64,000 bases of DNA from Schaalia sp. ZJ405. GTDB lineage: Bacteria > Actinomycetota > Actinomycetes > Actinomycetales > Actinomycetaceae. Positions 1-60,590 of the stretch are shown piece by piece. The stretch's first letter is position 1. Every line of letters starts with the position of its first letter. Location of the stretch: assembly GCF_011038885.2 (NCBI RefSeq), contig NZ_CP064952.1, forward strand, positions 1,426,001-1,490,000. Reading direction: 5' to 3'. The notes beneath the pieces were generated by a model that saw nothing but the letters and a program-made list of their open reading frames with translations, was not told where the DNA came from and made no database searches. Both the position numbers and the translations under genes were made by a program.

Positions 1-163
1 GCGCAGCCCATTCGAGGAGCTCTCGTGCCTCAATATGACCATTGACCTCGCCGATCGCACTCAGCTGCATCCTTGCCCAGCGCAGCAGTGAGGCAACCGT
101 TGTTCCGGGATTGTCGTCCTCGTCTGGCTGACCGTCACCGACGAAGGTCCGCCGCTCAGCCAT
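1..163 (-). CDS. prmC: Release factor glutamine methyltransferase PrmC, N-terminal part (cut by window edge)
   Basis: Only the first ~54 codons are visible. PrmC methylates the glutamine of the GGQ motif in release factors, using S-adenosylmethionine. The visible part reads as the helical N-terminal substrate-binding domain of the family (LLRWARMQL...EARELLEWA). The ATG lies inside the end of prfA, so the two genes overlap by 8 bp and are probably translationally coupled. This is the usual prfA-prmC order. An acidic stretch near the start (residues ~14-18, PDEDD) is encoded by a copy of the dispersed ACGAGGACGA repeat at 114-123. The methyltransferase domain lies beyond the window. Confidence 0.8.
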
Positions 164-1262
164 TCGCCGCGGATGCCAGGCGCTCGGCCTCGTCAACTTC
201 CTGAAGCGAGGCAATGACATCGGTGAGCGCCCCAGCAAGTACCTGGTCGAGATTGTGGGCTTTGTATCCCGTTCGGTGATCAGTGATCCGATTCTCAGGG
301 AAGTTATACGTCCGAATACGTTCCGAACGGTCGACCGTGCGCACCTGCGACCTGCGCTGAGCGGATGCTTCCTCTTCTTTGCGTGTCCGAGCCTCTGCCG
401 CCAGACGTGACGCGAGGACGCGCAGTGCCGCCTCTTTGTTCTGCAATTGCGACTTCTCGTTCTGCATCGACACGACAATTCCTGAGGGCAGGTGCGTGAT
501 ACGAACCGCAGAATCCGTTGTGTTCACGGACTGTCCGCCGGGGCCCGAGGACCGATACACGTCAATGCGCAGGTCATTGGGGTCAATGACGATTTCGCCC
601 TCGTCCTCGATCTCAGGCATGACAAAAACTCCGGCGGCGCTGGTGTGGATGCGTCCTTGAGATTCCGTCACAGGAACGCGCTGCACGCGGTGAACCCCAC
701 CCTCAAATTTCAGATGTGCCCACACGCCCTGGTCAGGTGCAGGAGTCCCTTTTGCTCGAATCGCTAGGGTGATGTCTTTATAGCCGCCGAGTTCCGTGTG
801 GGTCGCCGACAGCTCCGTGACGCTCCACCCCTGTGTCTCGGCGTATCGCGCATACATTCGGGCCAGATCCGACGCGAAAAGCGCCGACTCTTCTCCCCCC
901 TCGCCCGCTTTGATTTCGAGAATAGTGTCGAGGGCGTCCTCGGGATCACGGGGAGCAAGGATCGTCATTAACGCATCGTGGGCGTTGTCGAGTTCATTTT
1001 CGAGGGCGGGGATCTCTTCAGCGAAACTGGAATCCTCATCGGCGAGTTCCCGGGCCGCTCCCAGGTCATCACGGGCCGCAGTGAAACGATCAGCCGCAGC
1101 CTTGATACGTCCCAGCTCGGCGTAACGACGCCCGACCTTACGCATGAGCGAAGGATCAGCCAGGGTCTGCGGGGCAGACATCTGCGCCTCAACCTCACGG
1201 TATTCGTTGAGAATGGGGCCGAGAGCCGAAAGCTCGTCGTCCGCAGGATTTTCAGAAGTCAT
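156..1262 (-). CDS. prfA: Peptide chain release factor 1
   Basis: RF1 recognises UAA and UAG stop codons in the ribosomal A site and triggers release of the finished peptide. The 368-aa product has the normal family length. The RF1-type anticodon tripeptide is seen as PVT at residues 197-199, followed by the ESQGRIHTS stretch, and the catalytic GGQ at 242-244. RF2 would have SPF instead of PxT. The ATG has a GGAG ribosome-binding site (minus-strand TTGGAGACAACCCG). It overlaps prmC downstream. In related genomes rpmE lies directly upstream; here an insertion sequence sits in that spacer, so prfA may now be cut off from read-through out of rpmE. Confidence 0.97.
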
Positions 1263-1339
1263 CGGGTTGTCTCCAACTCACAGGGTCGTCACCGGCACAC
1301 ACAGGTCTGTCGGTCGAAAGAAAGCCTAGCGAAGATGTG

Positions 1340-1365: not shown

Positions 1366-1370
1366 TTGTG

Positions 1371-2671: not shown

Positions 2672-2681
2672 AAGATGTGCA

Positions 2682-5393: not shown

Positions 5394-5405
5394 ACGAGGA
5401 CGAGC
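5394..5405 (+). repeat. Dispersed ACGAGGACGA repeat, intergenic copy
   Basis: Lies in the ~294-bp gap between thrB and rho. The context CTTCATTGACGAGGACGAGC shares its upstream flank with the copies at 41764 and 52271 (CATTAACGAGGACGAC), so the similarity reaches beyond the core. Apart from this copy and the presumed rho promoter, nothing else is recognised in 5141-5434. Confidence 0.75.
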
Positions 5406-11751: not shown

Positions 11752-12540
11752 CTATGCGGCAATCTGCCTCTGAGCTGCATCGAGAGTCGCGGGTTCCTGA
11801 TGGAGCCTGGACATCCGAAGATATTCGAGGATCGCTTCCAGGTCCCCTATCGGGGCCGCGGGGTCTTCGGGATGCCATTGCACTCCGAGGATCGGCAGGC
11901 GTGTGTGCTCAATTGCCTCGACGATGCCGTCCTCAGCGCGAGCACTCACCGCAAGATCTGTTCCCAGTTCCTCGACACATTGGTGATGGGCGGAGGAAAC
12001 GTCGAGTCGTTCATGGCCGGGATAGATGGACGCAAGCTGTGTATTCTGCGCAATCGTCACCGGATGGCGAACGAATATGCGATCCTCAAGGATCAACGGG
12101 TTGTTGTGCTCACCTGATTCAATATGTTGGGTGAGGGTCCCACCGAAAGCAACGTTGAGAATCTGCATTCCGCGACAGATCCCCACAAGCGGCGTGTTCG
12201 TGGCTGCGGCGTAGCGCGCGAGAGCCAGTTGAGCGTGGTCTGCGCGAAGCCAGTGGCGTCCTTCGTCTTCGTATCCCTGGCTTTTGCCGTAGCAGGACGG
12301 GTGCACGTCCTCGCCACCCATGACGATGATTGCGTCAGCCTCATGGGCTCGTAGGGGGATTCCCTCAGGGCCGTCGAGTTGGGCGTATTCCCGGATGATG
12401 TTCCACGAGGACGAGGCGGCGGTGATGATACGTTCCCACAGGCACATGATGAGTGCGTCATACATCGGATCTCCTGGTCGGCTTGGCAGGACATTCGAGA
12501 TGAGCAACGTCGGCTTGTGGGCTGTCATAATCGCCATCAT
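11752..12540 (-). CDS. Class I glutamine amidotransferase-like hydrolase (peptidase C26, PuuD type)
   Basis: A 262-aa protein resembling gamma-glutamyl-gamma-aminobutyrate hydrolase. The nucleophile cysteine sits in VGICRGMQ and the catalytic His-Glu in VQWHPED. VMGGEDVHPSCYG is the family's substrate-loop motif. PuuD releases GABA in putrescine breakdown, but no other putrescine genes are nearby, so the substrate is unknown. Two in-frame ATGs lie near the start (12540, 12528) and neither has a clear ribosome-binding site. It converges on pflA. A copy of the dispersed repeat (12405-12414) encodes the Ser-rich ASSSW segment. Confidence 0.85.
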   Translation of the reverse strand: MMAIMTAHKPTLLISNVLPSRPGDPMYDALIMCLWERIITAASSSWNIIREYAQLDGPEGIPLRAHEADAIIVMGGEDVHPSCYGKSQGYEDEGRHWLRADHAQLALARYAAATNTPLVGICRGMQILNVAFGGTLTQHIESGEHNNPLILEDRIFVRHPVTIAQNTQLASIYPGHERLDVSSAHHQCVEELGTDLAVSARAEDGIVEAIEHTRLPILGVQWHPEDPAAPIGDLEAILEYLRMSRLHQEPATLDAAQRQIAA

Positions 12541-15887: not shown

Positions 15888-16910
15888 TCACTGGCTGAGG
15901 AACCTCGACAGGTATGCGGCGACAGCCCTGACGTAGGACATTGTTTTGGCGTAGTCCATGCGTGTTGGGCCGACAACCCCCAGGTGTGCGCGCGCCGCGA
16001 ATGGTGAATCCGTGGTCCGGTAGGTCCCGGTGACAACGGATGTTTGAGTAAGCGCGTCGTGCGGGTTTTCCTCACCGATCGTCACATGCACATCGTCATC
16101 TTGGTTGAGTTCGGAGAACAGTCGCATGAGGACGACCTGTTCCTCAAGGGCGTCAAGCACGGGTGCAATGTCACCGAAGTCAACGGCTCCGCGGGCAAGG
16201 TTCGAGATCCCCGCAAGAACGATTCGTGATTCCGCGGTGGATTCCAGGAGATCACTCACGGCCTCGGTCATCATCATCACCCCGTCTCGCAGGTGCGCGG
16301 GGGCCTCGTCAGCAAGGGTGTCAAAGGCTTCGTGCACCTCGGTGACGTCGCGGCCTTCAGCTACCGCGTTCACTCGGCTTCGCACCCAGTTGAGGTCCTC
16401 AGCGGAGAAAGGATGAACGAGGACGAGCGTGCGCTGTTCAACGCGCCCAGACTCAGTGACAACGATGACAAGGATATTCGTGGGCGCAAGGTCAACGAAC
16501 TCAACTCTGCGGAGTTTTTCGCGTACCAACGCAGGGTATTCAACGACGGCGACTTGGCGAGTCACCTGGGACAGCAGACGCACCGTCCGTGTGACAACGT
16601 CGTCGAGGTTGTCACTTTGAGAAAGGAAGGATTCAACGGCCTTGCGTTCGGGCAGGCTCATCGGTTTGAGGGTGCGAAGTTGATCAACGAAAACGCGGTA
16701 TCCCTTGTCTGTGGGGACGCGACCGGCGCTCGTGTGCGGCTGGTAGATCAGCTCAGCTTCTTCAAGGACAGCCATGTCGTTGCGGATCGTTGCCGAGGAC
16801 ACCCCGAGGTCGTGGGACTGCGCAATGACTTTTGAGCCAACGGGTTCACGAGTGTGGACGTACTCGGTGACAATGGCGCGCAGCACGTCAAGTCTGCGGT
16901 CATTACTCAT
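15888..16910 (-). CDS. hrcA: Heat-inducible transcription repressor HrcA
   Basis: Represses heat-shock operons by binding CIRCE elements and is tuned by GroEL. The 340-aa product has family length. It starts with a winged helix (RRLDVLRAIVTEYV...SVATIRND-type SSATIRNDM) and continues into the IRD and GAF-like regions (HTSAGRVPTDKGYRVFVD). The ATG has a perfect AAGGAGG site. A CIRCE element lies ~120 bp upstream, so hrcA-dnaJ-rsmE should be autoregulated. Confidence 0.97.
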   Translation of the reverse strand: MSNDRRLDVLRAIVTEYVHTREPVGSKVIAQSHDLGVSSATIRNDMAVLEEAELIYQPHTSAGRVPTDKGYRVFVDQLRTLKPMSLPERKAVESFLSQSDNLDDVVTRTVRLLSQVTRQVAVVEYPALVREKLRRVEFVDLAPTNILVIVVTESGRVEQRTLVLVHPFSAEDLNWVRSRVNAVAEGRDVTEVHEAFDTLADEAPAHLRDGVMMMTEAVSDLLESTAESRIVLAGISNLARGAVDFGDIAPVLDALEEQVVLMRLFSELNQDDDVHVTIGEENPHDALTQTSVVTGTYRTTDSPFAARAHLGVVGPTRMDYAKTMSYVRAVAAYLSRFLSQ

Positions 16911-17174: not shown

Positions 17175-18083
17175 GTGACTGTGACACCAATTGATCCCTA
17201 CGGGACGAATATCTTCGCCCACGACCCGCATCGCGAGGGGCCCAATGCGCGTCGTCCTCGTTCCCGTGACGTCGCCGTTGAATACGGGATGGTTCTCGAG
17301 GACGTGACCACAGGTTGGGTGGGCGCGGTCACCCGGGTTGAAAAGTCCGCAGGCGTGTACCTCATCGAACTTGAGGACCGTCACGGACGCACCCGTTCTT
17401 TCCCTCTTGGCCCAGGCTTTTGGCTTGACGGAGAACCCATTAACGCCTGCCCTCCACGCCCCCGGTCAGCACCACCGGATCATTTAGCTGCGACAACCCC
17501 GATGGGCCGTCGCGTAACCAATTCCGGGTCGATCGCTGTTCCTCACGCCCCAGCCCGCATCGCCAAGGCCTCGCGTATCTGGGTGGAGGGACGACACGAC
17601 GCTGAACTTGTTGAACACATGTGGGGCGAGGACCTCGGCCTCGAAGGAATCGTCGTTGAACTCCTTGAAGGAGTGGACAATCTCGAAGAAATTCTTGAAG
17701 AATTCACCCCGACCACCAGCGCCCGAGCCGGCATCCTCATCGACCATGCCGTTGCCGGATCAAAAGAGTCGCGCATCGCCGACGCCGTCATGCGTCGCTG
17801 GGGCGAGAGCGTCCTCGTGGTCGGCCATCCCTTCGTTGACATTTGGCAGGCCGTTAAACCCGAACGCCTGGGCCTGACGAAATGGCCTGATATTCCCCGC
17901 GGAACGGACATCAAAGTTGGGACCCTCACTCACCTTGGCTGGCCCCACGACACCCAGGCCGACATCGCCCGCGGATGGAAAAGAATTCTCGCGACCGTGC
18001 GCACATACCGCGACCTTGAGCCTGCTCTCCTTGGACGCGTCGAAGAACTCATCGACTTCGTCACCGCGCCCGGTATTCAGTGA
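17175..18083 (+). CDS. DUF3097 family protein
   Basis: A 302-aa protein of unknown function found in Actinobacteria. It starts with VTVTPIDPYG (GTG). A small beta-rich segment (~40-80: EYGMVLEDVTTGWVGAVTRVEKSAG) resembles an SH3-like barrel. From ~130 there is a TOPRIM-like pattern (RIWVEGRHDAELVEHMWGEDL...GILIDHAVAGSKESRIAD), which suggests a nucleic-acid-linked role; that is inference. The early Arg-rich stretch RRPRSRD is encoded by a dispersed repeat copy (17252-17261). It is divergent from hrcA, with little visible ribosome-binding site. Confidence 0.87.
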   Translation: MTVTPIDPYGTNIFAHDPHREGPNARRPRSRDVAVEYGMVLEDVTTGWVGAVTRVEKSAGVYLIELEDRHGRTRSFPLGPGFWLDGEPINACPPRPRSAPPDHLAATTPMGRRVTNSGSIAVPHAPARIAKASRIWVEGRHDAELVEHMWGEDLGLEGIVVELLEGVDNLEEILEEFTPTTSARAGILIDHAVAGSKESRIADAVMRRWGESVLVVGHPFVDIWQAVKPERLGLTKWPDIPRGTDIKVGTLTHLGWPHDTQADIARGWKRILATVRTYRDLEPALLGRVEELIDFVTAPGIQ

Positions 18084-18099: not shown

Positions 18100-19359
18100 T
18101 TAGCCGTCGTATCCCATGAGAGTGCGCGTGACGAGGTCGGCGAGCAAACGGCCTCTGAGCGTGAGAACGATCTGACCTCGAAGCGCTGACACAGGATCTA
18201 CCAGCCCATCGGCGATGAGTCTGGCAACGCGGTCCGGGCGTTGATGCTCAGACAGCGTGGCACCGTCGGCCGTGCGCACCGACAGCATCACCCGTTCAAG
18301 TTCACGCTCGGTGCTTCCCAGGATTTCACCTGCTGCCCCAGGCGACATTCCCCCCGCTAATCGCCCCGCGTAAGCGCGCGGATGTTTGACGTTCCACCAG
18401 CGCAGACGCCCGATGTGGGAGTGCGCCCCCGGGCCGAAACCCCACCAGTCCCAGTCGCGCCAATAGGCTAAATTATGGCAGGATGCGTGACGAAGACTCG
18501 TGGAAGCACACTCGTCCTCGTCCCCTTCAACGCGCGCAAAATTGGAGATCTCATACCAGCGGTATCCCGCTGCGCCTAAGAGTTCGTCGGCAAGTTCGTA
18601 CTTCGTCGCTTCATCGTCTGGGTCGGGAAGAGGCAGATCTCCGCGCGCAACCTGAGCGGCCATCTTGGTGCCTTCCTCAATGACCAAGGCATAGGCACTG
18701 ATATGGTCGGGACGCATCCCAATTGCCGCTTCCACACTCAAGCGCCACTGGTCAACAGTTTCACCGGGAGTGCCATAGATCAGGTCAAGTGAGGTATCAA
18801 GCCCGACCTCACGTGCCGCTGCAACAACAACGGGCACACGCTCGGGGGTGTGCGTGCGGTCAAGGGTGCGAAGAACACTGGGGACTGCCGACTGCATGCC
18901 AAAGGATACGCGCGTCACTCCCGTGTCTTTGAGAGCCTTCAACCGCTGGGCATCCACAGTTTCCGGGTTTGCCTCGACGGTGATCTCACAGTCGTCGGCT
19001 AAACCGATATGCGAACGAATACCGTGAAGGATTGCCGCGATACTCCGGGTGTCCAGCAGCGTTGGCGTCCCTCCGCCGAAGAACACGGTTCGCGCTGGTC
19101 TGCGCGCAAAGCCAGCATCGTTGAGGATCGAGGCGGCCATCCGTACTTCACTGACAACGGACTCATGGTAGGACGTGAGGTCGGCTCCCTGGCCGAACTG
19201 TGCGGTGTACGTGTTGAAGTCGCAGTAGCCGCACCTCACCCGGCAAAACGGAACATGAACGTAGACGCTCAGCGGGCGTGATTGCTCCACCTCGGCGCAG
19301 GCCGGATCGATCCTGCCGTCCGTTGGCCAGGTGATCCCATCGGGTTGGTGTGGGCTCAT
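18100..19359 (-). CDS. hemW: HemW-like heme chaperone (radical SAM)
   Basis: Related to oxygen-independent coproporphyrinogen oxidase. HemW proteins bind heme and insert it into respiratory enzymes rather than oxidising coproporphyrinogen. The 419-aa protein has the radical-SAM cysteines in CRVRCGYCDF, GGGTPTLL, and the HemW-type HNLAYWRDWDWWGFGPGAHS segment. Its ATG overlaps the stop of the upstream MFS gene by 4 bp, so it ends a lepA-trmB-MFS-hemW operon. A dispersed repeat copy (18512-18521) encodes the acidic GDEDEC stretch just before the HN motif. Confidence 0.92.
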   Translation of the reverse strand: MSPHQPDGITWPTDGRIDPACAEVEQSRPLSVYVHVPFCRVRCGYCDFNTYTAQFGQGADLTSYHESVVSEVRMAASILNDAGFARRPARTVFFGGGTPTLLDTRSIAAILHGIRSHIGLADDCEITVEANPETVDAQRLKALKDTGVTRVSFGMQSAVPSVLRTLDRTHTPERVPVVVAAAREVGLDTSLDLIYGTPGETVDQWRLSVEAAIGMRPDHISAYALVIEEGTKMAAQVARGDLPLPDPDDEATKYELADELLGAAGYRWYEISNFARVEGDEDECASTSLRHASCHNLAYWRDWDWWGFGPGAHSHIGRLRWWNVKHPRAYAGRLAGGMSPGAAGEILGSTERELERVMLSVRTADGATLSEHQRPDRVARLIADGLVDPVSALRGQIVLTLRGRLLADLVTRTLMGYDG

Positions 19360-20618
19360 CGTAAGTCCCAGTCTCGGTCAACGGTGTCGAGTACCTCCAG
19401 CCCCAGGGGGCGGCGCGACACAATGAATGCTGACACAGTCATGAGCGTGAGCGAAGCGGTGAGAATGACGAAGGGAATCCGCCACGATCCACTCCACGTG
19501 TGCACCCACCCAATGGAGATGGGGCCGATTGCGGCAACGATGTAGCCGATGCTTTGCACGAAAGACACGACACGTCGGTTGATGTCGAGCGACGGAGATT
19601 GCTCGATGACCGTTGTGAAGAGCACCGTGAAAAATCCGCCGTGTCCGATGCCGCACAGAGTGCACCACAGCGCCCAGATCGCGGGGGCACACAGAAGTCC
19701 CAGCGGCATTGACAGCCAGCATGCGCAGACGAGGGCAAGTGTTGCGCGCTGACTCCATTTGAGCACCCCGAAGGTCAATGACGGCAGCAGTGATCCGAGG
19801 ATTCCGCAGACGTGGAACAGTGATGTTGCTGTTCCCGCCTGGGATGCGCTCATGTCGAGGATGTCTTCAAGCATCGTCGGAAGCCACGAGGCGAGGGAAA
19901 AGAACGCGTAGGTGTGTGCGCCGAACGCCACCGCGAGAAGCACCACTGAAGGCACAGACCTCAGGGAACGAGGACGAGCCTGCGTTTTCCTGTGGATTTC
20001 TCCTGGGAGCGCAGGTGAGTGCGCGCCTCGTCCTCGTCCCCTGATCTGTGGAGGAAACACGAACTGCCATGCGGTAAGGATGATGATGCCGGGAATTGCG
20101 ACCCATAGGAATGTTGACCATCGCCACCCCACGTGGGAGGCCGTGGGAACAGCGGCGATCGTGACAGCCGCAACCCCCAGGTTCGTTGACACCGTGTACA
20201 GACCCGTCATGAGGGAAGCACGGAAGGGGAAGTCTCGACCGATGAGCAGGGGAATAACGACATTGCCGAGGGTCATGCCAAAACCAATGATGACCGTGCC
20301 CACGAAAAGGAACGCAGCTGGACCGACGGAGCGGATCGCAGCCCCGATCACAATGAGGACGAGGCACACCATGCCTCCCGCGTTCGGTCCTAGTCGACGA
20401 AGCAGACTCGAACCTGCGGGGGTCAGCAGACCGAAACACACAATGGGAACGGAAGTGAGCGCGCCAAGGGCAACGGCATCAAGGGCCTGGCTCTCGCCGA
20501 TGTCTCGCAGTAGCGGGGGGATCACGGAAATCGGGGACCGCAGGAGCAGCGCGAGGCTCAGGAGAACGAGCGCGCTGATCAGGGTTGCGTGTGCGCTCTG
20601 ACGAGCTTGTGTACTCAC
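19356..20618 (-). CDS. MFS transporter, CynX/NimT-like
   Basis: A 420-aa membrane protein with about 12 hydrophobic segments, resembling the cyanate/nitroimidazole transporter branch of the major facilitator superfamily. The substrate cannot be told from sequence. It starts with GTG overlapping the trmB stop, and its stop overlaps hemW. The central cytoplasmic loop (~205-235) is unusually Arg-rich (RGRGRG, RPRSLR). This loop is encoded by two oppositely oriented copies of the dispersed repeat (19968 and 20028), read in different frames. An efflux or uptake gene inside an otherwise housekeeping operon is unexpected. Confidence 0.85.
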   Translation of the reverse strand: MSTQARQSAHATLISALVLLSLALLLRSPISVIPPLLRDIGESQALDAVALGALTSVPIVCFGLLTPAGSSLLRRLGPNAGGMVCLVLIVIGAAIRSVGPAAFLFVGTVIIGFGMTLGNVVIPLLIGRDFPFRASLMTGLYTVSTNLGVAAVTIAAVPTASHVGWRWSTFLWVAIPGIIILTAWQFVFPPQIRGRGRGAHSPALPGEIHRKTQARPRSLRSVPSVVLLAVAFGAHTYAFFSLASWLPTMLEDILDMSASQAGTATSLFHVCGILGSLLPSLTFGVLKWSQRATLALVCACWLSMPLGLLCAPAIWALWCTLCGIGHGGFFTVLFTTVIEQSPSLDINRRVVSFVQSIGYIVAAIGPISIGWVHTWSGSWRIPFVILTASLTLMTVSAFIVSRRPLGLEVLDTVDRDWDLR

Positions 20619-21562
20619 CGAGAGTCACCACAAGGGACGTTTTCCGAGGGCCCGTCTACTGTGGGACGTGGAAGCCGAACTCCGACGATGTCGTGAGCCC
20701 TGCGCCCCGCATCGATCCCTCGGGTCTCGAAATGTGTGATGATGCGTCCCTGAAAACGCGGGGCAAAGCCGCCGCGCTCAGGTTCGGGGTCCTCAGGATC
20801 GGGTCGCTCACCTTCGTAGGGGTTGGCGAGAAGATCGCAGGATTCAACGACGTCACGCATCTGCCACGCATAGTCATCCCAGTCCGTAGCCAAACGCCAC
20901 AGCCCACCGTCTTGGAGGATCCGTGCGATCTCGCGGGCAAAGGAATCGGATACGAGGCGGCGTTTGCGGTGACGGGCCTTGCGCCACGGGTCAGGGAAGA
21001 ACGTCCACACTTCTGCAACCGATGCATCCTTCAGGAGGATGGGCAGAGCTTGGGCGGCGTCAGCTTCAAGAACGCGGATATTCGATACGTCTGCGGCTGC
21101 GGCCTTCGAGATGAGTTTCGCAATCCCAGGGACCCACACTTCAAGCGCCAAGTAGTCGCGGTCTGGGTGCGAGGCGGCCGCTGCAACGATCTGTTCCCCG
21201 GTTCCTGAGCCGATCTCAACCGTCACTGGGGCGCTGCGGCCAAACTCTTGGGCAATATCGAGGTGGAAATCCTCAGCGATCGTGGTGAATCCGATGCCGC
21301 GTCGAGGCTCAATGACGTAGCGGTCACCGTGGGTCGCCCATGTGCGTTGAAGACCGATGGGAAGATCACGGGATCGACGAGTGAACGACTTTGTGCGCGC
21401 CATGTACACGTCAGGGGAACCGGGCGTTCCGGGGGCTTTCTTGCCCCCGGGTTGAGCATCATTCGTATGCAATGGGGCCGAGGACGAGGACGAAGACGAA
21501 GACGAAGACGAAGTATTCTGCCCCGCCGCGTCGTGACCGTGGGAAGCGTCGGCGTTGCTCAT
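20615..21562 (-). CDS. trmB: tRNA (guanine-N7-)-methyltransferase
   Basis: Makes m7G46 in tRNA variable loops. The 315-aa protein is longer than E. coli TrmB (239 aa) owing to a ~60-residue N-terminal extension with a run of about 13 serines (~18-30). The SAM-binding motif is [11 protein letters not shown], and [15 protein letters not shown] is the family's tRNA-binding signature. The poly-Ser run is encoded by GAGGACGAGGACGAAGACGA-type DNA that contains the dispersed repeat core. It overlaps lepA upstream and the MFS gene downstream, by 4 bp each. Confidence 0.95.
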
Positions 21563-23640: not shown

Positions 23641-24693
23641 CTAGGCGCTCAGACGCCTCTGACTGATTTTTTGTTCAATATCTGCCATGACATCGTGAAA
23701 TAGCGCGCGCTCGTCCTCGTCCCACTCCTGCGGAGCCACCGCGAGAATCTTCTGACACCACAGCGCCGCCTGATCCCACTCCTGGTGATCCATAGCAAAG
23801 GTCATCTGGATGACCATCTGAGTGACGGTACGCGGGTCACTGGGACCAAATGTCTCCTCGAATCGGTCTGCGAGATCATTCCATAGGTTTTCTGCTCCCC
23901 ACGAGTCCCCACTGAGGTAGGTCATCCGAGCCAAGCAATGACGGACCCTCAAAGTCCGATGATCATCGGCACCGAAACAGTCGGTGAGAATAGTGAGCAA
24001 CGCGGAATACTCTTCGATGGCTTCGTCAAAACGTTCAGCCTCACCCAGTGCTTCAGCGAAATTATCCCGCACCGCCAGGTACAGGACGTCCGACTTCTCG
24101 CAGCGCACAGACATGTCCTCTCGCAAGTTCCGATAGATCTCGATTGCACGCTCCCAGTCCCCCGATAGTTTCGACGGCATCGCGGAATTATTCTCCACCG
24201 CCCACACCAAGGGATCGTTGTCACCACATACTCTGCGAACATCCTGACGAAGCTCGTTGAATTGGCTGTCCAGGTTGCTGTAACCGCACATGCAGGCCCA
24301 ATACAGAGTGGCATTGCGCATCGTCAGAGTTTCGTGACTATCTGCTCCCTTGACGAGCGTGGAATGAATACTGCCGATCGTTGCCCATGCAAGCGCGACA
24401 TTCGGCCGATCCATTTGTCCGTTCCACGTGATCAGCAGTCGAAGAATCGCCAGTGTGTCCTGCGAATTTGTTGCCGGGTGGATCACGGCTCTTTCAGCTT
24501 GAGACACCGCCTTCTCATAATCTCCTTGGGTTGCGGTTTCAATTGCTTCCTCGATCAGTTCGGCTGGAGTGCATAGTTCCTCCTCCGACTGACCTCCGTC
24601 TCCCCCTCGCGAAGGCACCGCCACCAAAGGCAGGTCCATCACTGTCAACAGGCTCGTCGTGCGGGGTTTCACCGTTGTGCAGGGTTTCATCAT
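23641..24693 (-). CDS. Tetratricopeptide-repeat protein of unknown function
   Basis: A 350-aa soluble protein. From ~45 on it is built of TPR-like helix pairs (GDYEKAVSQAERAV, GDWERAIEIYRNL, ERFDEAIEEYSALL, DSWGAENLWNDLADRFEETFG, EWDQAALWCQKIL), as in the tetratricopeptide proteins that mediate protein contacts. There is no signal peptide or catalytic domain. The codon pattern is more relaxed than in neighbouring housekeeping genes, which hints at accessory status. The ATG pair at its start has AAGGAG upstream. A dispersed repeat copy (23711-23720) encodes EWDEDERA near the C-terminus. No partner is evident. Confidence 0.75.
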   Translation of the reverse strand: MMKPCTTVKPRTTSLLTVMDLPLVAVPSRGGDGGQSEEELCTPAELIEEAIETATQGDYEKAVSQAERAVIHPATNSQDTLAILRLLITWNGQMDRPNVALAWATIGSIHSTLVKGADSHETLTMRNATLYWACMCGYSNLDSQFNELRQDVRRVCGDNDPLVWAVENNSAMPSKLSGDWERAIEIYRNLREDMSVRCEKSDVLYLAVRDNFAEALGEAERFDEAIEEYSALLTILTDCFGADDHRTLRVRHCLARMTYLSGDSWGAENLWNDLADRFEETFGPSDPRTVTQMVIQMTFAMDHQEWDQAALWCQKILAVAPQEWDEDERALFHDVMADIEQKISQRRLSA

Positions 24694-29601: not shown

Positions 29602-29912
29602 TCACCCGCAGGGGACCTGTGGAAAACTCAGCTCCTCAAGCCAACCTGTGGATCCGTGAGAACTCATACGCAGCATGGAAAATATGGCCCTGTTTTTCGT
29701 CACATATAGGGTGTCACCTGCGCCTGAACACGCAGGATGTGGTGAGTGCAGCTTCGTCCTCGTCCCCATGTATCCCATACCAATCCACAGGAAACGTGCC
29801 CCGGGGCTGACGACGCCGACTCTGGCGGCTAAATTAAGACCCAAACGCTCGGTGCTCGCAGCGATACCCCCGCGCGCTCGCGCCAACGCTGCTCAACGCT
29901 TTGGAGGAATGA
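29602..29912. other. Divergent spacer comEA/proC with a repeat copy
   Basis: A 311-bp gap holding promoters for both sides. A dispersed repeat copy in reverse orientation (CTTCGTCCTCGTCCCCATG, core 29754-29763) lies in it. No gene or RNA is recognised. Confidence 0.6.
29754..29763 (-). repeat. Dispersed ACGAGGACGA repeat, intergenic copy
   Basis: On the minus strand it reads GGGGACGAGGACGAAGC, an exact core match with one change from the usual following G. It lies ~150 bp upstream of comEA. Confidence 0.75.
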
Positions 29913-41763: not shown

Positions 41764-41775
41764 ACGAGGACGACG
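41764..41775 (+). repeat. Dispersed ACGAGGACGA repeat, intergenic copy, beside a DnaA-box match
   Basis: The context CATTAACGAGGACGACGCC shares 16 bp with the copy at 52271. About 20 bp further, CCTGTGGATAACG (41791-41803) contains TGTGGATAA, the complement of the DnaA-box consensus. Nothing else is recognised in the ~275-bp gap between the M20 gene and valS, which must hold both promoters. Confidence 0.7.
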
Positions 41776-41959: not shown

Positions 41960-44692
41960 ATGGGCGAGCGTCCCGACCTGACCCCTACGACCGTTCCAGC
42001 ACCCGTGGTCCCTGACCGCGTCGGCGCCGAAGGCCTCGAAGCCAAGTGGGGTGAGCAGTGGGAAACCCAGGGAACCTACGATTTTGATCGCACGGCGACG
42101 CGCGAGGATGTCTACTCGATTGATACTCCTCCGCCTACGGTATCCGGTTCTCTCCACGTCGGTCACGTCTTCTCCTACACGCACACCGACGTTATCGCTC
42201 GCTATCAGCGCATGCTCGGCAAGTCCGTGTTCTACCCGATGGGCTGGGATGACAACGGCCTGCCAACGGAACGCCGCGTCCAGAACTACTACGGTGTTCG
42301 CGTTGATCCCACGCTTGCGTACGAGGAAAATTTTGTTCCCCCGCACGAGGGCGGCGAAGGAAAATCCATTAAAGCCCGCGACCAGAAACCGATCTCACGG
42401 AAGAACTTTGTTGAACTGTGTGAGCGTCTGACCGTTGAGGATGAGGCCCAGTTTGAGTCCCTGTGGCGTTACCTTGGCCTGTCCGTTGACTGGAAACAGC
42501 ACTATCAGACGATCGGTACGCGTGCCCGCAAGGTTGCACAGGCCGCGTTCTTGCGCAACCTCGCTCGAGGTGAGGCCTACCAGAGCGAAGCACCTGGACT
42601 GTGGGACATCACCTTCCAGACGGCCGTTGCGCAAGCGGAACTCGAATCGCGTGAATACCCGGGCTTTTACCATCGCATTGCTTTCCATGTGACGGATGCG
42701 GATGCTGCCGCTCAGGCACGGGCCGCAGGTGCCCCCATTGAAGGCGACGTTGATGTCTGCATCGAGACCACGCGTCCTGAGCTTCTGGCGGCCTGCGTCG
42801 CCCTCGTTGCCCATCCCGATGATGAGCGCTACAAGCCGCTCTTTGGGACAACCGTGGCTTCACCCGTGTACGGGGTTGAGGTTCCCGTCCTCGCTCATCC
42901 CGAAGCTGAAATGGACAAGGGTGCTGGCATCGCCATGTGCTGTACCTTCGGTGACACAACCGACATTGACTGGTGGCGTGACCTGGATCTGCCGCTGCGT
43001 GCGATCCTGCGCAAAGACGGACGTATTCTCACCGATACCCCCGAGTGGATCACCACACCGGAGGGCATTGCCGCATACGAGGCAATCGCCGGTAAAACCA
43101 CGTTCTCTGCCCGTGAGTTGGTTGTTGCCGCTCTTAGGGAATCCGGTGAGCTTAAAGGCGAACCAACGAAGACCCTGCGTCAGACAAACTTCTTTGAGAA
43201 AGGCGACAAGCCGCTTGAGATCGTCACCTCACGCCAGTGGTATATCCGCAACGGCGGGAAGACGTGGGATCACCCGGTCTCGGGAGTAAACCTTAACGAC
43301 GAACTCATTGAGCGGGGGCGCGAACTGAAGTTCCACCCTGAATTCATGCGCGTGCGCTATGAAAACTGGGTCAAGGGACTCAACAACGACTGGCTGATTT
43401 CGCGTCAGCGTTTCTTCGGTGTCCCCTTCCCGCTGTGGTACAAGATTCGTCAGGACGGCGAGGTTGATTACTCCGCGGTCATTACCCCCAGTGAGGATGC
43501 TCTTCCGGTTGATCCGTCAACCGATGTTCCCGCGGGCTATACCGAGGCACAGCGCGGAGTTCCCGGCGGATTCGCAGCCGAACTCGACATTATGGACACC
43601 TGGGCAACCTCGTCTCTCTCCCCTGAAATTGCCACGGGATGGCTTGACGACGAGGACCTGTTCTCCCGGACTTTCCCAATGGATTTGCGTCCGCAGGGTC
43701 AGGACATTATTCGCACGTGGCTGTTCTCCACCGTTGTGCGCTCTCACCTTGAGTTCCGTTCTCTCCCGTGGAAGCACGCGGGAATTTCCGGATGGATCCT
43801 TGACCCCGACCATAAGAAGATGTCGAAGTCGAAGGGCAACGTCGTTACCCCGATGGATTTGCTCGTCAAGTACGGGTCTGACGCGGTGCGTTACTGGGCG
43901 ACATCCGCACGTCTTGGCTTGGATGCCACTTTCGATGAGCAGCAGATGAAGATCGGGCGTCGCCTGGCAATCAAGGTTCTCAACGCCTCAAAGTTCGCCC
44001 TGACGATGGGCGGTGAAGATGCCAGCCTCGACCTTGATCCCTCGCACGTCACCTGTGACTTAGACCGTTCCGTTATCGCACAGCTGCGGGAGGTCATTGA
44101 AACCGCAACCAGCGCCCTGGCAACCTACGATCATTCACGCGCCCTTGAGGTCACGGAAACCTTCTTCTGGACTTTCTGTGATGACTACCTTGAGCTGGTC
44201 AAGGAACGTGCCTACAACCGTGAGGGCACATGGAACGAGGACGAGGCCGCGTCCGCACGCGCTGCCCTTGCCATCGTTATTGATCACGTCGTTCGGCTTT
44301 TGGCACCCTACCTGCCGTATGTCACCGAAGAAGTGTGGTCCTGGTATCGCACCGGCTCGATCCACGTTGCGCCGTGGCCAACAACAAGCGCTCTTGAGGG
44401 AGTTGGCGGTGACCGGGAGGTCCTCGCTCAAGCATCGGGTGCCCTCATTGCGCTGCGCCGGGTGAAGTCCGAAGCGAAGGTGTCACCGCGCACCCCCTAC
44501 CTTGCTGTGACGCTTGAGGCTCCCAAGGCGGCACTTGCTCACCTTGAGTCCGTTCGCCCTGACCTCTCTGCCGCATCAAAGGTCGAGGGCGAGCTTGTGC
44601 TCAAGGCAGCTCCCACCTCTCAAGACGGTGAAGCTGCCGTGCGGGTTGCGAGCTTCGAGCTGGGCGAGGCACCCGCCCGCAAGAAGAACTAA
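41960..44692 (+). CDS. valS: Valyl-tRNA synthetase
   Basis: Charges tRNA-Val and edits mischarged threonine. It is ~910 aa from the chosen ATG, which has GGAG nine bases upstream; in-frame ATGs at 41930, 41945 and 41954 are alternatives. The class I signatures are HVGH (SGSLHVGHVFSYTHTD) and KMSKSKGN. The variant GWDDNGLPTERRVQNYYGVR differs from the LDHAG-type segment of E. coli ValS and suggests the second, archaeal-like ValS type found in some Actinobacteria. A dispersed repeat copy (44235-44244) encodes WNEDEAAS in the anticodon-binding domain. Confidence 0.95.
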   Translation: MGERPDLTPTTVPAPVVPDRVGAEGLEAKWGEQWETQGTYDFDRTATREDVYSIDTPPPTVSGSLHVGHVFSYTHTDVIARYQRMLGKSVFYPMGWDDNGLPTERRVQNYYGVRVDPTLAYEENFVPPHEGGEGKSIKARDQKPISRKNFVELCERLTVEDEAQFESLWRYLGLSVDWKQHYQTIGTRARKVAQAAFLRNLARGEAYQSEAPGLWDITFQTAVAQAELESREYPGFYHRIAFHVTDADAAAQARAAGAPIEGDVDVCIETTRPELLAACVALVAHPDDERYKPLFGTTVASPVYGVEVPVLAHPEAEMDKGAGIAMCCTFGDTTDIDWWRDLDLPLRAILRKDGRILTDTPEWITTPEGIAAYEAIAGKTTFSARELVVAALRESGELKGEPTKTLRQTNFFEKGDKPLEIVTSRQWYIRNGGKTWDHPVSGVNLNDELIERGRELKFHPEFMRVRYENWVKGLNNDWLISRQRFFGVPFPLWYKIRQDGEVDYSAVITPSEDALPVDPSTDVPAGYTEAQRGVPGGFAAELDIMDTWATSSLSPEIATGWLDDEDLFSRTFPMDLRPQGQDIIRTWLFSTVVRSHLEFRSLPWKHAGISGWILDPDHKKMSKSKGNVVTPMDLLVKYGSDAVRYWATSARLGLDATFDEQQMKIGRRLAIKVLNASKFALTMGGEDASLDLDPSHVTCDLDRSVIAQLREVIETATSALATYDHSRALEVTETFFWTFCDDYLELVKERAYNREGTWNEDEAASARAALAIVIDHVVRLLAPYLPYVTEEVWSWYRTGSIHVAPWPTTSALEGVGGDREVLAQASGALIALRRVKSEAKVSPRTPYLAVTLEAPKAALAHLESVRPDLSAASKVEGELVLKAAPTSQDGEAAVRVASFELGEAPARKKN

Positions 44693-44983: not shown

Positions 44984-47026
44984 ATGACTTCTCCACGCGA
45001 AGACACCCCGAAGGAAACATCCGATAAGGAAATATCTGACTCGGTGCAGGCCGACCTCGTCCTCGTCAATGAGAACGACAAGGACGCAACCCAGGCCACT
45101 GGCTCCTCCCCCGCCCAGGATGGGCAAGCGACACCGGAAACTGACATCGCTGCCGACAGCGCCACCGCTGACGCCCTCGACGAACTCGGGGAAAACGGTG
45201 CGACCACGGCGTTGGAATGGCATGCTCCCGTGTTGGTCCGCACTGATGAGCACACAACAATTCCGGAACTCCTTAAACGCCGCGTCCAACGCTCGCCGCG
45301 GCACTCACTGATTTTACGCAAGCAAACGATCTCTGATTCGTGGATTCCCGTGACCGCACGCGACTTCTACGCCGAAGTCCAAGCTGTGGCTGCCGGACTC
45401 ATTGCCTTGGGCCTTCACGCCGGTGAACGTATCGCCATCATGTCGCACACCCGCTACGAGTGGACGCTCCTTGACTTTGCCTCGTGGACCGCCGGGTTGG
45501 TTCCCGTGCCGATCTACGAAACTTCCTCGATTGACCAGTGCAGCTACGTTCTGCGTGATGCGCAAGCACGCGTGGTGTTCACGGAAACAATCACGATGGC
45601 CGAAGTGGCTAAAGCCGCTGCTGAAAGAGCCGGGCTGGATGATGTTCGCGTTCATTCCTTTGACTCCGAAGCTATTGAAACCCTCATTGATCAGGGGGCA
45701 ACGACGCCGCGCTCCGAAGTCTCTGCCCGAACCAACGGCCTGACCACGGATGACATTGCGACCATTGTTTACACGTCCGGCACCACAGGCGAACCCAAAG
45801 GGACCGTCATCACGCACGGAAACTTCACCGAACTCTGCGTCAACGCCCACGCGTGGATGCCGGAGATCGCGATGTTCCCCGAATCACGGCTGCTGCTTTT
45901 CCTCCCCCTCGCGCACGTCTTTGCTCGGTTCCTTGAAGTTTTCCAGATCGCCTCCGAGGGCGTTCTCGGCCTCTCCCCTGACACGAAGAATCTCCTGCCC
46001 GACCTGGCAACCTTCAAGCCAACGTACCTGCTTGTTGTGCCGCGCGTACTGGAGAAAATCTATAACTCAGCCGATGCCAAAGCCTCTGCCGGGGGCACGC
46101 GCAAGATCTTCCGCTGGGCCGCTGACGTCGCGATCCGCTATTCCAAAGCCCTCGACACTGAGGAAGGACCGTCCCGGTCCCTCAAAGCACAGCGAGCCGT
46201 GGCCGACAAACTCGTCTACCAGAAAATTCTCAAACTCGTTGGCGGGAATGTTGGCTATATCGTCTCCGGTGGCGCTCCCCTGTCCACGTACCTTGGGCAC
46301 TTCTACCGAGGCCTGGGAATCCCCGTGCTCGAAGGATATGGCCTCACCGAAACCGTTGGTCCCGTTTCCGTTGGCACGCCGCGTCTGTCGAAAATCGGTA
46401 CCGTGGGATGCCCGCTCCCCCCGATGTCCGTTCGTATTTCTGACGAGGGCGAGGTTCTCCTCAAAGGTCCGTCCGTATTCGCCGGATATAACAATAAGCC
46501 CGAAGCAACCGCTGCCGCTTTCACCGAGGACGGGTGGTTTAAGACCGGCGATCTTGGCTCACTTGACCGTGACGGTTATCTGACGATCTCCGGGAGAGCG
46601 AAAGAAATCATCGTTACCGCCGGTGGGAAGAACGTTGCCCCCACCGCTTTGGAGGATCCGCTGCGCGCGCACCCCCTTATTTCTCAGGTCATCGTTGTGG
46701 GAGAAAAGCGCCCCTTCATTTCTGCTCTCATCACTCTTGACGCTGAGATGCTTCCCCTGTGGCTCAAGGCCCACAGCATGGGGACGATGTCGGTTGCCGA
46801 GGCAGCGAACAATATCGAAGTTCTTGCGTCTTTGGAACGAGCCGTTGCATCTGCCAACGAGCATGTCTCACGTGCCGAATCGATCCGCAAAATCAAAGTT
46901 CTCACCACCGATTTTACCGAGGCTAACGGCCTGCTCACCCCGTCCTTGAAAGTGAAACGGAACGTTGCGCTCAAGCGTTTTGCTTCGGTCATTGACGAGA
47001 TCTACGGTGGTCCCGTTGAGGACTAA
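44984..47026 (+). CDS. Long-chain acyl-CoA synthetase (AMP-forming)
   Basis: Activates fatty acids to acyl-CoA through an acyl-adenylate. The 680-aa protein is FadD15-like. The first ~80 residues are an acidic, Ala/Thr-rich, probably disordered tail. AMP-binding motifs are YTSGTTGEPKG and GYGLTETVGP, followed by WFKTGDLGSLDRDGYLTISGRAKE and the C-terminal lysine-bearing GKNVAPTALE. The dispersed repeat copy at 45057-45066 encodes DLVLVNEN within the tail. The stop of this gene is ~50 bp before the chorismate mutase gene, with no terminator between. Confidence 0.93.
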   Translation: MTSPREDTPKETSDKEISDSVQADLVLVNENDKDATQATGSSPAQDGQATPETDIAADSATADALDELGENGATTALEWHAPVLVRTDEHTTIPELLKRRVQRSPRHSLILRKQTISDSWIPVTARDFYAEVQAVAAGLIALGLHAGERIAIMSHTRYEWTLLDFASWTAGLVPVPIYETSSIDQCSYVLRDAQARVVFTETITMAEVAKAAAERAGLDDVRVHSFDSEAIETLIDQGATTPRSEVSARTNGLTTDDIATIVYTSGTTGEPKGTVITHGNFTELCVNAHAWMPEIAMFPESRLLLFLPLAHVFARFLEVFQIASEGVLGLSPDTKNLLPDLATFKPTYLLVVPRVLEKIYNSADAKASAGGTRKIFRWAADVAIRYSKALDTEEGPSRSLKAQRAVADKLVYQKILKLVGGNVGYIVSGGAPLSTYLGHFYRGLGIPVLEGYGLTETVGPVSVGTPRLSKIGTVGCPLPPMSVRISDEGEVLLKGPSVFAGYNNKPEATAAAFTEDGWFKTGDLGSLDRDGYLTISGRAKEIIVTAGGKNVAPTALEDPLRAHPLISQVIVVGEKRPFISALITLDAEMLPLWLKAHSMGTMSVAEAANNIEVLASLERAVASANEHVSRAESIRKIKVLTTDFTEANGLLTPSLKVKRNVALKRFASVIDEIYGGPVED

Positions 47027-52245: not shown

Positions 52246-52280
52246 TCGTCCTCGTTCTCCTTCTTCATTAACGAGGACGA
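52246..52280. repeat. Inverted pair of the dispersed repeat forming a hairpin
   Basis: Two copies face each other in the tig/DUF1349 spacer. TCGTCCTCGTT (52246-52256) pairs perfectly with AACGAGGACGA (52270-52280) around a 13-nt loop, CTCCTTCTTCATT. The loop and right arm resemble the single copy at 5380-5405. The position between divergent genes suggests either a boundary hairpin or two promoter-proximal sites. Nothing else is recognised in 52108-52398. Confidence 0.8.
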
Positions 52281-58577: not shown

Positions 58578-59565
58578 TCTCCAACAGCGCAGCGCACATC
58601 ACCCCGCACGCGCTCTCCCTCGAATCTTCGGTGACCTACGAGGAACGTCAACCCTGGTCACATGGGGCCTGCTCATTGTCGCGGTTGTCCTTGCAGCGAT
58701 CCTCCAACCCAAGTTCTTCACGCTCTACTCCATCACCTCAAATTTCGCGACCTTCACTCCCCTGGTTTTCGCAGCGGTCGCACAAGCCGTCGTCATCCTG
58801 TCGGGTGGACTAGACCTGTCAGTCGGAGCAGTGATCGCCCTGAGCTCCGTCACCGCGCTCACCGTCATGAACGGTGACGACACAAAAATCGCACTGGGTT
58901 TCATCGTCGCGATCCTCACCGGAATCGGATGCGGAATCGTCAATGGAATCATCATTGGCGTGGTTCGTCTTCAACCGCTCATCGCAACCTTCGGCACACT
59001 GTCAATCTTCTCTGGGATCACATTGCTGGTACTCCCCCAACCCGGCGGAGCAGTCCCGCCAGCGCTCACCAGTGTCTACCGAATGGCCATTGGCCGACTT
59101 CCCATCTCGCTGCTGCTGGTCCTCAGCTGCGCCCTTCTGTGGTGGATCCTCTCGAAAACAGTGTTCGCCCGCCATGTCTATGCAGTCGGATCGAACGCCG
59201 AAAGCGCCTACGCGTCGCTTGTGCCCGTGACGGGGGTGAAGATCGGTGCTTACGCCACATGCGGTTTCTTTGCCGGACTTGCTGCGCTAGCAATTCTGTC
59301 GAATACCGGTTCCGGAGACCCCTTCATTGGAGAATCTATGGCAATGGACTCCATTGCTGCATGTGTTTTGGGTGGCATCGCTCTTTCGGGTGGTCGAGGC
59401 AGTGGTTACGGCGCCATAGCGGGTGCACTGATCCTCTCACTCACCTCGAACATCCTGTTCTTCATCGGGGTTCCTACAACATACCGCCAACTTGCTTCCG
59501 GCCTGGTCATCATCGCCGCCCTCGCATTGTCGGTCCTCTCACCTAAAGGAGGGAAAACACAATGA
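58570..59565 (+). CDS. Sugar ABC transporter permease 1 (RbsC-like)
   Basis: A 331-aa membrane subunit with about 9-10 hydrophobic segments. The RbsC/AraH hallmark VVILSGGLDLSVGAVIALSSV is followed later by CVLGGIALSGGRGSGYGAIAGALIL. The ATG sits inside the last codons of the ATPase gene, preceded by GGAGG, so translation is coupled. Its partner permease follows with a 4-bp overlap. Confidence 0.93.
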   Translation: MTSLQQRSAHHPARALPRIFGDLRGTSTLVTWGLLIVAVVLAAILQPKFFTLYSITSNFATFTPLVFAAVAQAVVILSGGLDLSVGAVIALSSVTALTVMNGDDTKIALGFIVAILTGIGCGIVNGIIIGVVRLQPLIATFGTLSIFSGITLLVLPQPGGAVPPALTSVYRMAIGRLPISLLLVLSCALLWWILSKTVFARHVYAVGSNAESAYASLVPVTGVKIGAYATCGFFAGLAALAILSNTGSGDPFIGESMAMDSIAACVLGGIALSGGRGSGYGAIAGALILSLTSNILFFIGVPTTYRQLASGLVIIAALALSVLSPKGGKTQ

Positions 59566-60590
59566 GCCAGACACCGTCACCTGCACCCACGGCCACGTCC
59601 CTCCCAACTCACGGAGAAGGTCGTTCATCGGCCTCGTCGCGACTGCTTGGCTTCGTCAAGAACCCGATAGCCGTGTCAGCTTTCCTCACCGTAGCCCTGC
59701 TCGTGGTAGGCAACATCATCGCACCAGGCTTCGCGGCGCCGTCACAGATCACGTCGATGCTGCGCGTCGCTTCGTTCCTCGGATTCATGGCGATCGGACA
59801 AACCATCGTCGTCCTCTCCGGTGGCGATGGAATCGATCTTTCAATCGGAAAAGTTGCGACTTTCAGCGCGATCATCGCAGCCCGGATCATGAACGGATCA
59901 GATTCCAATGTCGTCCTCGGGCTGGTACTCGCACTGCTCGCGGGAACACTGATCGGCCTAGCCAACGGCATGGGCATCGTATTTTTACAAATCCCCCCGT
60001 TCGTCATGACCCTCGGCATGATGGGAGTTGTTCAAGGGCTCGCACTGGCTTACACCGGTGGCGTGGCCGCCGGTCGAGCAGCACCAATGCTCACCGCACT
60101 GGTTGGGAAGGGATCATTCCTGGGGATCCCCGGAGTCCTGTGGGTGTGGCTCATCATCAGCATCCTGGTCATCGCGATCCTTCGACGCACCCGATTCGGC
60201 TGGGAACTCTACGCCGTCGGCGCGAACCGTGAAGCAGCGCGCCTGTCCGGCATCAACGTCAAAAGCAGGGTTCTCCAGGCATACGCAGCCTCCGGTTTCT
60301 TCGCGGCGCTCGGTGGAATCATGCTGGTTGGCTATACCGAATCCGTGTTCCTCAACTTAGCTGACGCCTATACCCTGTCCTCCGTTGCTGCGGTCATCAT
60401 TGGCGGAACTCTCGCATCTGGCGGCATCGGAGGCTATGCGGGAACCGCGATCGGAGCCATCGTTTTGACCGTCCTGAATTCTTTCCTCACGACGCGCGAT
60501 ATTCCCGAGGCCGTCCGCACAATCATCAACGGCGTCGTCCTCGTAGCTTTGCTTGCTGCTTACGGCAGGCAAAAACGACTGAGAAATTAG
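59562..60590 (+). CDS. Sugar ABC transporter permease 2 (RbsC-like)
   Basis: A 342-aa membrane subunit with VVLSGGDGIDLSIGKVATFSAI and AAVIIGGTLASGGIGGYAGTAIGAI. It is clearly different from permease 1, so the channel is probably a heterodimer, unlike the RbsC homodimer of E. coli. An AAAGGAGG site precedes the ATGA overlap. The single exact repeat core in the segment (60535-60544) encodes VVLVA and may be chance. Confidence 0.93.
   Translation: MSQTPSPAPTATSLPTHGEGRSSASSRLLGFVKNPIAVSAFLTVALLVVGNIIAPGFAAPSQITSMLRVASFLGFMAIGQTIVVLSGGDGIDLSIGKVATFSAIIAARIMNGSDSNVVLGLVLALLAGTLIGLANGMGIVFLQIPPFVMTLGMMGVVQGLALAYTGGVAAGRAAPMLTALVGKGSFLGIPGVLWVWLIISILVIAILRRTRFGWELYAVGANREAARLSGINVKSRVLQAYAASGFFAALGGIMLVGYTESVFLNLADAYTLSSVAAVIIGGTLASGGIGGYAGTAIGAIVLTVLNSFLTTRDIPEAVRTIINGVVLVALLAAYGRQKRLRN

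What the first reader, a model, noticed from the sequence alone, without database searches (positions are those of the whole stretch)
114..60544. Dispersed short repeat ACGAGGACGA in 22 exact copies, both strands
Seen: exact cores (orientation) at 114(-), 5394(+), 12405(+), 16417(+), 17252(-), 18512(-), 19968(+), 20028(-), 21484(+), 23711(-), 24862(+), 28187(+), 29754(-), 33497(+), 35812(-), 35956(+), 41764(+), 44235(+), 45057(-), 52246(-), 52271(+), 60535(-), counted by eye. With ~60% GC a random 10-mer of this composition is expected about 0.15 times in 64 kb on both strands. Flanks extend it to RRACGAGGACGASSC. Six copies are intergenic. Copies in genes are read in several frames (DEDE, LVLV, RPRS, RGRG, SSSS) and fall mainly in linkers, loops or disordered tails, so selection is on DNA, not protein. 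No strand bias (12 versus 10) argues against Chi or KOPS. Known parallels are the uptake sequences of Neisseria and Pasteurellaceae; comEA and comEC are in this window. An uptake or other genome-wide signal role is inference, and I know of no such sequence described in Actinobacteria.
Basis: partly seen in the sequence, partly recalled or inferred. Interest (0 to 1): 0.88.

Follow-up and report, generated by a model that had tools for sequence, protein, structure and literature searches.

The report
DNA uptake-like tag in actinobacteria
This bacterium and most examined species of its genus carry a short DNA word in many copies, with spellings that differ between species, and it is nearly missing from two viruses lodged in the chromosome; it looks like a self-DNA tag for DNA uptake, a kind known so far only from two Gram-negative families.

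Summary
The 10-mer is part of a broader motif whose core CGAGGACG has 1,837 copies (control 155), about one per 1.3 kb. In a 464-kb sample it ranks first of all 8-mers, and first in intergenic DNA. It has no leading/lagging bias (191/197) and exceeds synonymous-codon and codon-pair nulls. Relatives carry other middle bases (CGAGGCCG, CGAGGGCG or mixtures); some lack the word. Two prophages carry 1 and 3 copies where core density predicts about 30 and 29. comEA and comEC lie in the window; two Tad-type pilus loci lie elsewhere; no type IV pilin signature was found in 72 genomes of the family. Best reading: an independently evolved DNA uptake sequence system. Uptake, competence and receptor are not shown, and comEA/comEC also occur in species without the motif.

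The parts
114..123 (-). motif copy, intergenic
5394..5403 (+). motif copy, intergenic, with the ATTG-type left flank
12405..12414 (+). motif copy, in a called gene
16417..16426 (+). motif copy, in a called gene (hrcA, opposite sense)
17252..17261 (-). motif copy, in the DUF3097 gene
18512..18521 (-). motif copy, in a radical SAM gene
19968..19977 (+). motif copy, left arm of an inverted pair with 20028, inside an MFS transporter gene
20028..20037 (-). motif copy, right arm of the inverted pair (single-strand DNA fold z -5.8)
21484..21493 (+). motif copy, between called genes, or in the 5' part of the methyltransferase frame 20615-21562 if its longest start is right
23711..23720 (-). motif copy, in a called gene
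24862..24871 (+). motif copy, intergenic
28187..28196 (+). motif copy, inside comEC
29754..29763 (-). motif copy, intergenic, upstream of comEA
33497..33506 (+). motif copy, in the ClC-type channel gene
35812..35821 (-). motif copy, in an ABC transporter ATPase gene
35956..35965 (+). motif copy, in an ABC transporter ATPase gene
41764..41773 (+). motif copy, intergenic, upstream of valS
44235..44244 (+). motif copy, in valS
45057..45066 (-). motif copy, in an acyl-CoA ligase-like gene
52246..52255 (-). motif copy, left arm of an intergenic inverted pair
52271..52280 (+). motif copy, right arm of the inverted pair (single-strand DNA fold z -7.5)
60535..60544 (-). motif copy, in a called gene
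27099..28667 (-). comEC (PF03772 Competence, E 1.4e-43), inner-membrane DNA channel of transformation
28711..29601 (-). comEA (SLBB plus HHH_3), DNA-binding protein of transformation

Best explanation
The word is a DNA uptake sequence in the functional sense: a self-DNA tag. Proposed working (inferred): a surface receptor of the competence machinery prefers DNA holding (A/C)CGAGGnCG with the species' own middle base and flanks. DNA is drawn in by a Tad-type pilus, handed to ComEA, and enters as a single strand through ComEC. Recombination of preferentially taken-up fragments then seeds and keeps copies by drive, and the spelling drifts with the receptor, giving dialects. Shown here: abundance, position and strand pattern, independence from codons, differing spellings among relatives, and near-absence from two prophages. 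Inferred: receptor, uptake preference, competence, and use of Tad pili.
For: 1,837 CGAGGACG in 2.35 Mb against 155 for the reversed pattern; 664 of the 10-mer against 6. Rank 1 of 26,234 ranked 8-mers in my 464-kb sample and rank 1 of 6,043 in its intergenic DNA. Intergenic 74 against 3.35, or 60 against 3.05 with genes extended to their longest starts; coding 314 against 60.6 (synonymous shuffle) and 99.9 (codon-pair-aware shuffle). Strand 191/197. A CGAGGnCG word ranks 1st to 3rd in 17 of 21 sampled genomes, with different n. C dialect: G016 1282 against 111 and G024 1069 against 81, while their G form is at background and their A form at 1.7 and 1.4 times control. Extended pattern ATTNNCGAGGNCG at 20 or more copies and 10 or more times control: 31 of 35 genomes of the genus, 9 of 37 of other genera of the family, 0 of 46 of other families of the order (cut-off set after seeing the counts). 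On a ComEC tree the C dialect needs 3 changes against a shuffled mean of 11.4 (0 of 500 shuffles as low). Two prophages hold 1 and 3 CGAGGACG where core density predicts 30.2 and 29.3, and no 10-mer; they were identified by terminase, portal, head, tail and integrase genes. comEA and comEC in the window; two Tad loci.
Against: No experiment, no strain population data, no receptor. comEC was found in 113 of 118 genomes and comEA in 66 of 70, including motif-poor G032, G005 and G035, so these genes do not track the motif. No type IV pilin N_methyl match in any of the 72 genomes of the family, so a ComP-type receptor was not detected. The words are not concentrated in convergent gaps (0.63 per kb against 1.18 and 1.44) and only mildly paired, unlike the terminator pairs of Neisseria. 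By a fixed rule the G-dialect label is not clustered on the tree beyond shuffles (5 changes, mean 5.8, 113 of 500 as low) and 11 of 43 rows are 'mixed'. In GC-rich genomes of other families the forms are often 2 to 4 times, and up to 9.5 times, above the reversed control (G090: G 9.5, C 7.5, A 2.4), so simple counts there are not evidence. Within genes most copies sit in two codon phases (261 of 314). Each prophage integrase gene carries one copy.
Confidence: 0.66

Rival explanations
1. A Chi-like regulatory site for the double-strand-break repair helicase-nuclease, protecting self DNA and scarce in phages.
For: Hundreds of copies, nearly absent from two prophages, variable between lineages.
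Against: No leading-strand bias (191 against 197). A pair of large genes next to the second Tad locus has a PD-(D/E)XK nuclease domain in both products and a UvrD-type helicase match in one, which resembles AdnAB; from memory AdnAB does not respond to Chi. I did not search for RecBCD or AddAB.
Confidence: 0.1
2. Binding site of a chromosome-organising or nucleoid protein that must cover the whole chromosome.
For: Spread over all twenty 20-kb samples (10 to 24 copies of the 8-mer each) and both strands.
Against: Different spelling of about a thousand sites between species of one genus and background levels in G032 and G005 are hard for an essential factor. The motif is asymmetric. I found no partner, but did not search for one.
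Confidence: 0.1
3. HIP1-like oligonucleotide kept by an unknown mutation, repair or methylation process without a role in uptake.
For: HIP1 of cyanobacteria (recalled) is likewise abundant and of debated function.
Against: HIP1 is a palindrome (recalled); this is not. Prophages in the same chromosome have the motif near chance level, though recent arrival could explain that. Flank preferences extend it beyond the 10-mer.
Confidence: 0.1
4. Codon or codon-pair bias (Asp-Glu, Val-Leu, Ser-Ser runs in a GC-rich genome).
For: In genes most copies sit in two phases (132 sense, 129 antisense of 314). Many high-GC outgroups show excess of these words over the reversed control.
Against: Highest relative excess is intergenic (74 against 3.35; 60 against 3.05). 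Excess in all six phases over a codon-pair-aware null. Middle-base-specific dialects. In 80 loci of other actinobacteria the words rank 189th to 821st of 28,635.
Confidence: 0.03
5. Remains of a dispersed mobile repeat (REP or IS fragments).
For: Two inverted pairs in the window fold well.
Against: Little sequence similarity beyond about 6 bases on either side. Most sampled copies lie in genes (90 of 136 10-mers). One-base dialects across the family.
Confidence: 0.01

Closest known systems
DNA uptake sequence (DUS) of Neisseriaceae with receptor ComP
   Same: Many copies of a 10-12 bp asymmetric word, in genes and between them; species dialects around a fixed core; some relatives lack it (PMC3630211, abstract and passages seen).
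   Different: Unrelated sequence; core CGAGGnCG in place of CTG; no type IV pilin N_methyl match in the family; not enriched in convergent gaps; function untested.
Uptake signal sequence (USS) of Pasteurellaceae
   Same: Short genome-wide self tag with two dialects; its receptor was still called unknown in 2025 (PMC12616744, start of abstract and passages seen).
   Different: Different sequence and lineage; Pasteurellaceae use type IV pilus machinery (same passages), this family shows only Tad-type genes as far as tested.
Chi sites and KOPS
   Same: Frequent short oriented words (recalled).
   Different: No replication-strand bias here.
HIP1 of cyanobacteria (recalled)
   Same: Abundant octamer spread over the chromosome.
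   Different: HIP1 is palindromic (recalled); this motif is asymmetric with flanking preferences and differs in spelling between relatives.

Membership tests
DNA uptake sequences (DUS/USS, functional kind) | Hundreds to thousands of copies of a 9-12 bp word, far above composition | tested here: met
   664 (10-mer) and 1,837 (8-mer) copies; controls 6 and 155; rank 1
DNA uptake sequences (DUS/USS, functional kind) | Both strands, no replication-strand bias, spread over the genome | tested here: met
   191 leading, 197 lagging in 464 kb; 10 to 24 copies in each of twenty 20-kb samples
DNA uptake sequences (DUS/USS, functional kind) | Dialects among related species with a common core | tested here: met
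   CGAGGnCG, n differs between genomes; C label clustered on the ComEC tree, G label not beyond shuffles
DNA uptake sequences (DUS/USS, functional kind) | Rare in recently acquired foreign DNA | tested here: met
   Two prophages, 1 and 3 copies against about 30 and 29 at core density; only these two were examined
DNA uptake sequences (DUS/USS, functional kind) | Host is naturally competent | tested here: inconclusive
   comEA, comEC, Tad ATPase and inner-membrane genes present, but comEA and comEC are also in motif-poor relatives; DprA not searched; competence untested
DNA uptake sequences (DUS/USS, functional kind) | Word increases DNA binding, uptake or transformation | not testable with these tools
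   needs an uptake assay
Neisserial DUS proper | Receptor ComP, a type IV minor pilin | tested here: not met
   0 of 72 genomes of the family match PF07963 at E 0.001; 20 of 46 genomes of other families of the order do
Neisserial DUS proper | Frequent inverted pairs at gene ends as terminators | tested here: not met
   convergent gaps 0.63 per kb against 1.18 and 1.44; 23 opposite-strand and 21 same-strand neighbours within 100 bp among 367 neighbour pairs
Chi or KOPS | Leading-strand bias (recalled) | tested here: not met
   191 against 197
HIP1 | Palindromic octamer (recalled) | tested here: not met
   CGAGGACG is not its own reverse complement (seen directly)
REP or IS-derived repeats | Longer homologous unit around the copies | tested here: not met
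   information falls to at most about 0.15 bit beyond 6 bases on each side

The most novel reading that the evidence does not exclude
A third, independently evolved DNA-uptake-sequence system, the first in a Gram-positive lineage, with family-wide dialects of CGAGGnCG and a receptor that belongs to a Tad pilus or the ComEA/ComEC apparatus and not to a type IV pilus.
Probability: 0.58. Interest if true: 0.93.

Novelty: new variant of a known kind. Interest (0 to 1): 0.87.

Why it matters
[quoted passage not shown] A convergent system in an actinobacterial lineage with Tad pili would show that self-DNA tagging evolves repeatedly. It would give many natural dialects for finding the receptor by co-variation, imply natural transformation in a family for which the listings of my searches showed none, and offer a way to spot recently acquired DNA in these genomes by missing tags.

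Tried and rejected
Naming the organism failed. A genome-contig scan with ComEC found no relative. The family name Actinomycetaceae is therefore inference. Competence genes as a discriminator: ComEC in 113 of 118 genomes, ComEA in 66 of 70, T2SSE in 118 of 118, so no association with the motif. ComP-like pilins: no match in the family. Terminator association and strong pairing: not found. Simple 8-mer counts in GC-rich relatives are inflated and were supplemented by intergenic, codon-shuffle and extended-pattern tests. ComEC tree: 4 of 47 rows were dropped for want of a blastp match of the open frame taken (G007, G027, G012, G017). In the first tree I set the labels by hand, some on weak grounds (G001, G002, G008), and 10 of 43 rows had no label (8 changes, shuffled mean 16.0). 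Redone with a fixed rule for all 43 rows it gives 16 changes, shuffled mean 24.2, with C and 'none' clustered, G and 'mixed' not. The first prophage count (0 and 2) used bounds cut at flanking motif copies; with bounds set by genes it is 1 and 3, which I report. A look at the gap upstream of comEA in relatives was suggestive only and is not counted.
Full report
It is the commonest 10-mer of the window, and its centre CGAGGACG is the commonest 8-mer with 51 copies.

It is genome-wide. The window is bases 1,426,001-1,490,000 of a single 2,345,961-base contig. The contig holds 664 copies of the 10-mer, against 6 for the pattern read backwards, and 1,837 copies of CGAGGACG, against 155. There, CGAGGACG is 388 against 58.5 expected by an order-3 Markov model and the 10-mer 136 against 4.2. 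Of 26,234 8-mers ranked it is first, and first of 6,043 in intergenic DNA alone. A logo of 136 copies shows weak preferences from four bases before to five after the 10-mer (RKKR to the left, SSNSG to the right) and little beyond.

It is a DNA signal, not a protein one. By a simple gene finder of my own, intergenic DNA holds 74 CGAGGACG against 3.35 expected. My gene starts may be trimmed; with every gene extended to its longest start the count is 60 against 3.05 in 53.5 kb. Genes hold 314 against 60.6 when codons are shuffled among synonyms and 99.9 when codon pairs are respected, with an excess in all six codon phases, although two phases carry 261 of the 314 copies. Orientation to replication is even: 191 leading, 197 lagging, taking the terminus near 1.12 Mb from GC skew. 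Copies are not concentrated in convergent gaps, and neighbours within 100 bp are 23 opposite-strand and 21 same-strand of 367; so the terminator pairing of Neisseria is not a main theme, although two inverted pairs in the window fold well as single strands. The largest gap in the samples contains an rRNA operon.

Relatives differ in spelling. I counted CGAGGACG, CGAGGGCG and CGAGGCCG in 118 whole genomes (CGAGGTCG was counted only in samples). Some genomes of the same genus use only the C form: G016 has 1,282 C against a control of 111 with G at 167 against 178; G024 has 1,069 against 81. Others use G (G003 926 against 112 with C at 228 against 205; G039, another genus, 1,638 against 81) or A plus G (G060 1,741 against 51 and 1,559 against 67, with C 29 against 54). 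G032 is at background for all three. In many GC-rich genomes all forms exceed the reversed control, and one genome outside the family (G090) reaches 9.5 for G and 7.5 for C, so I rely there on other tests: intergenic counts (G010 C form 17 against 1.3; G013 G form 14 against 2.85; G014 18 G of 20 intergenic copies; with longest starts 12 against 1.05, 13 against 1.55 and 17 against 0.15) and an extended pattern, ATTNNCGAGGNCG. That pattern has 468 copies in the window's genome against 1, and reaches 20 copies and 10 times control in 31 of 35 genomes of the genus, 9 of 37 in other genera of the family and 0 of 46 in other families of the order (I set this cut-off after seeing the counts; G110 outside the family has 25 against 3, G094 18 against 0, G090 13 against 1). 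A CGAGGnCG word ranks first to third of all ranked 8-mers in 17 of 21 sampled genomes, which I had chosen for high, middle and low counts; the misses are G007, G013, G032 and G071. In 80 loci of other actinobacteria the words rank 189th to 821st of 28,635.

On a ComEC tree of 43 rows with labels set by a fixed rule, the C dialect needs 3 changes against a shuffled mean of 11.4 (0 of 500 as low) and the label 'none' 7 against 9.9 (8 of 500). The G label (5 against 5.8, 113 of 500) and 'mixed' are not clustered. Near-identical pairs such as G016 and G018 add to the clustering. The C rows lie in two parts of the tree.

Foreign DNA nearly lacks it. Two prophages were found through their integrases and confirmed by terminase, portal, head, tape-measure, endolysin and integrase families. 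With bounds set by genes, 36.1 and 35.0 kb hold 1 and 3 CGAGGACG, where core density predicts 30.2 and 29.3, and no 10-mer where 10.6 and 10.3 are predicted. One copy of each lies in the integrase gene. The sequences' own composition predicts about 2 each, so the prophages carry the word at about chance level. The left edge of the second was not located. Their GC (0.564, 0.561) is near that of the host sample (0.581).

Machinery. The window encodes comEC (27099-28667, minus) and comEA (28711-29601, minus). Elsewhere are two Tad-type loci with ATPase and inner-membrane genes. No genome of the family, 0 of 72, shows the type IV pilin signature PF07963 at E 0.001, while 20 of 46 in other families of the order do. 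ComEC is found in 113 of 118 and ComEA in 66 of 70 genomes, including motif-poor ones, so these genes do not by themselves explain where the motif is. That is the main weakness of the uptake reading.

Comparison with what is known. Neisserial DUS occur in thousands of copies, in eight dialects with an invariant CTG core, and five genomes of the family had no obvious DUS (PMC3630211, abstract and passages). A 2016 review names Pasteurellaceae and Neisseriaceae as the two families with such uptake (PMC5031613, passages), and a 2025 study calls them the only families known (PMC12616744, passages). Searches for uptake sequences with Actinobacteria, Actinomyces, Schaalia or Actinomycetaceae, and for the words themselves, showed no description in the rows listed (open-licence papers only; one search listed 25 of 1,824 and 12 of 133). 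The present motif shares the statistical hallmarks, the dialects and the scarcity in foreign DNA, but not the sequence, the pilus type or the terminator habit. I therefore say that it works like a DUS with probability about two thirds, and that membership in the functional class waits for an uptake assay.

Noticed in passing
L264-L265 (G000:C1:1,671,042-1,707,190) and L266-L267 (about 2,046,001-2,081,028): Two prophages with integrases at their right ends, recognisable by the scarcity of the motif; the left edge of the second was not located.
   Followed up: partly
window 27099-28667 (-): ComEC is short (522 aa); with Pfam at 1e-8 only the Competence domain is seen, while a number of relatives have open frames of 800 to 900 aa at their match.
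   Followed up: no
L179-L182 (relative G013): A second dispersed word, CGAAGTCCGCTC (AAGTCCGCTC 21 copies in 80 kb, 0.1 expected); its parts head the intergenic ranking.
   Followed up: no
L135-L138 (relative G007): Palindrome CGGATCCG 48 copies against 8.3 expected in 80 kb, in a genome with a weak CGAGGnCG signal.
   Followed up: no
G090 (another family of the order): CGAGGGCG and CGAGGCCG at 9.5 and 7.5 times the reversed control but CGAGGACG at 2.4, with only 13 copies of the extended pattern.
   Followed up: no
L238:11885-12730: A transposase-like gene lies behind the Tad pilin genes of the first Tad locus (judged from the start of its translation only).
   Followed up: no
L239:12188-18877: Two adjacent large genes next to the second Tad locus, one with UvrD helicase and nuclease domains, one with a nuclease domain at the cut-off used, resemble AdnA and AdnB.
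   Followed up: partly
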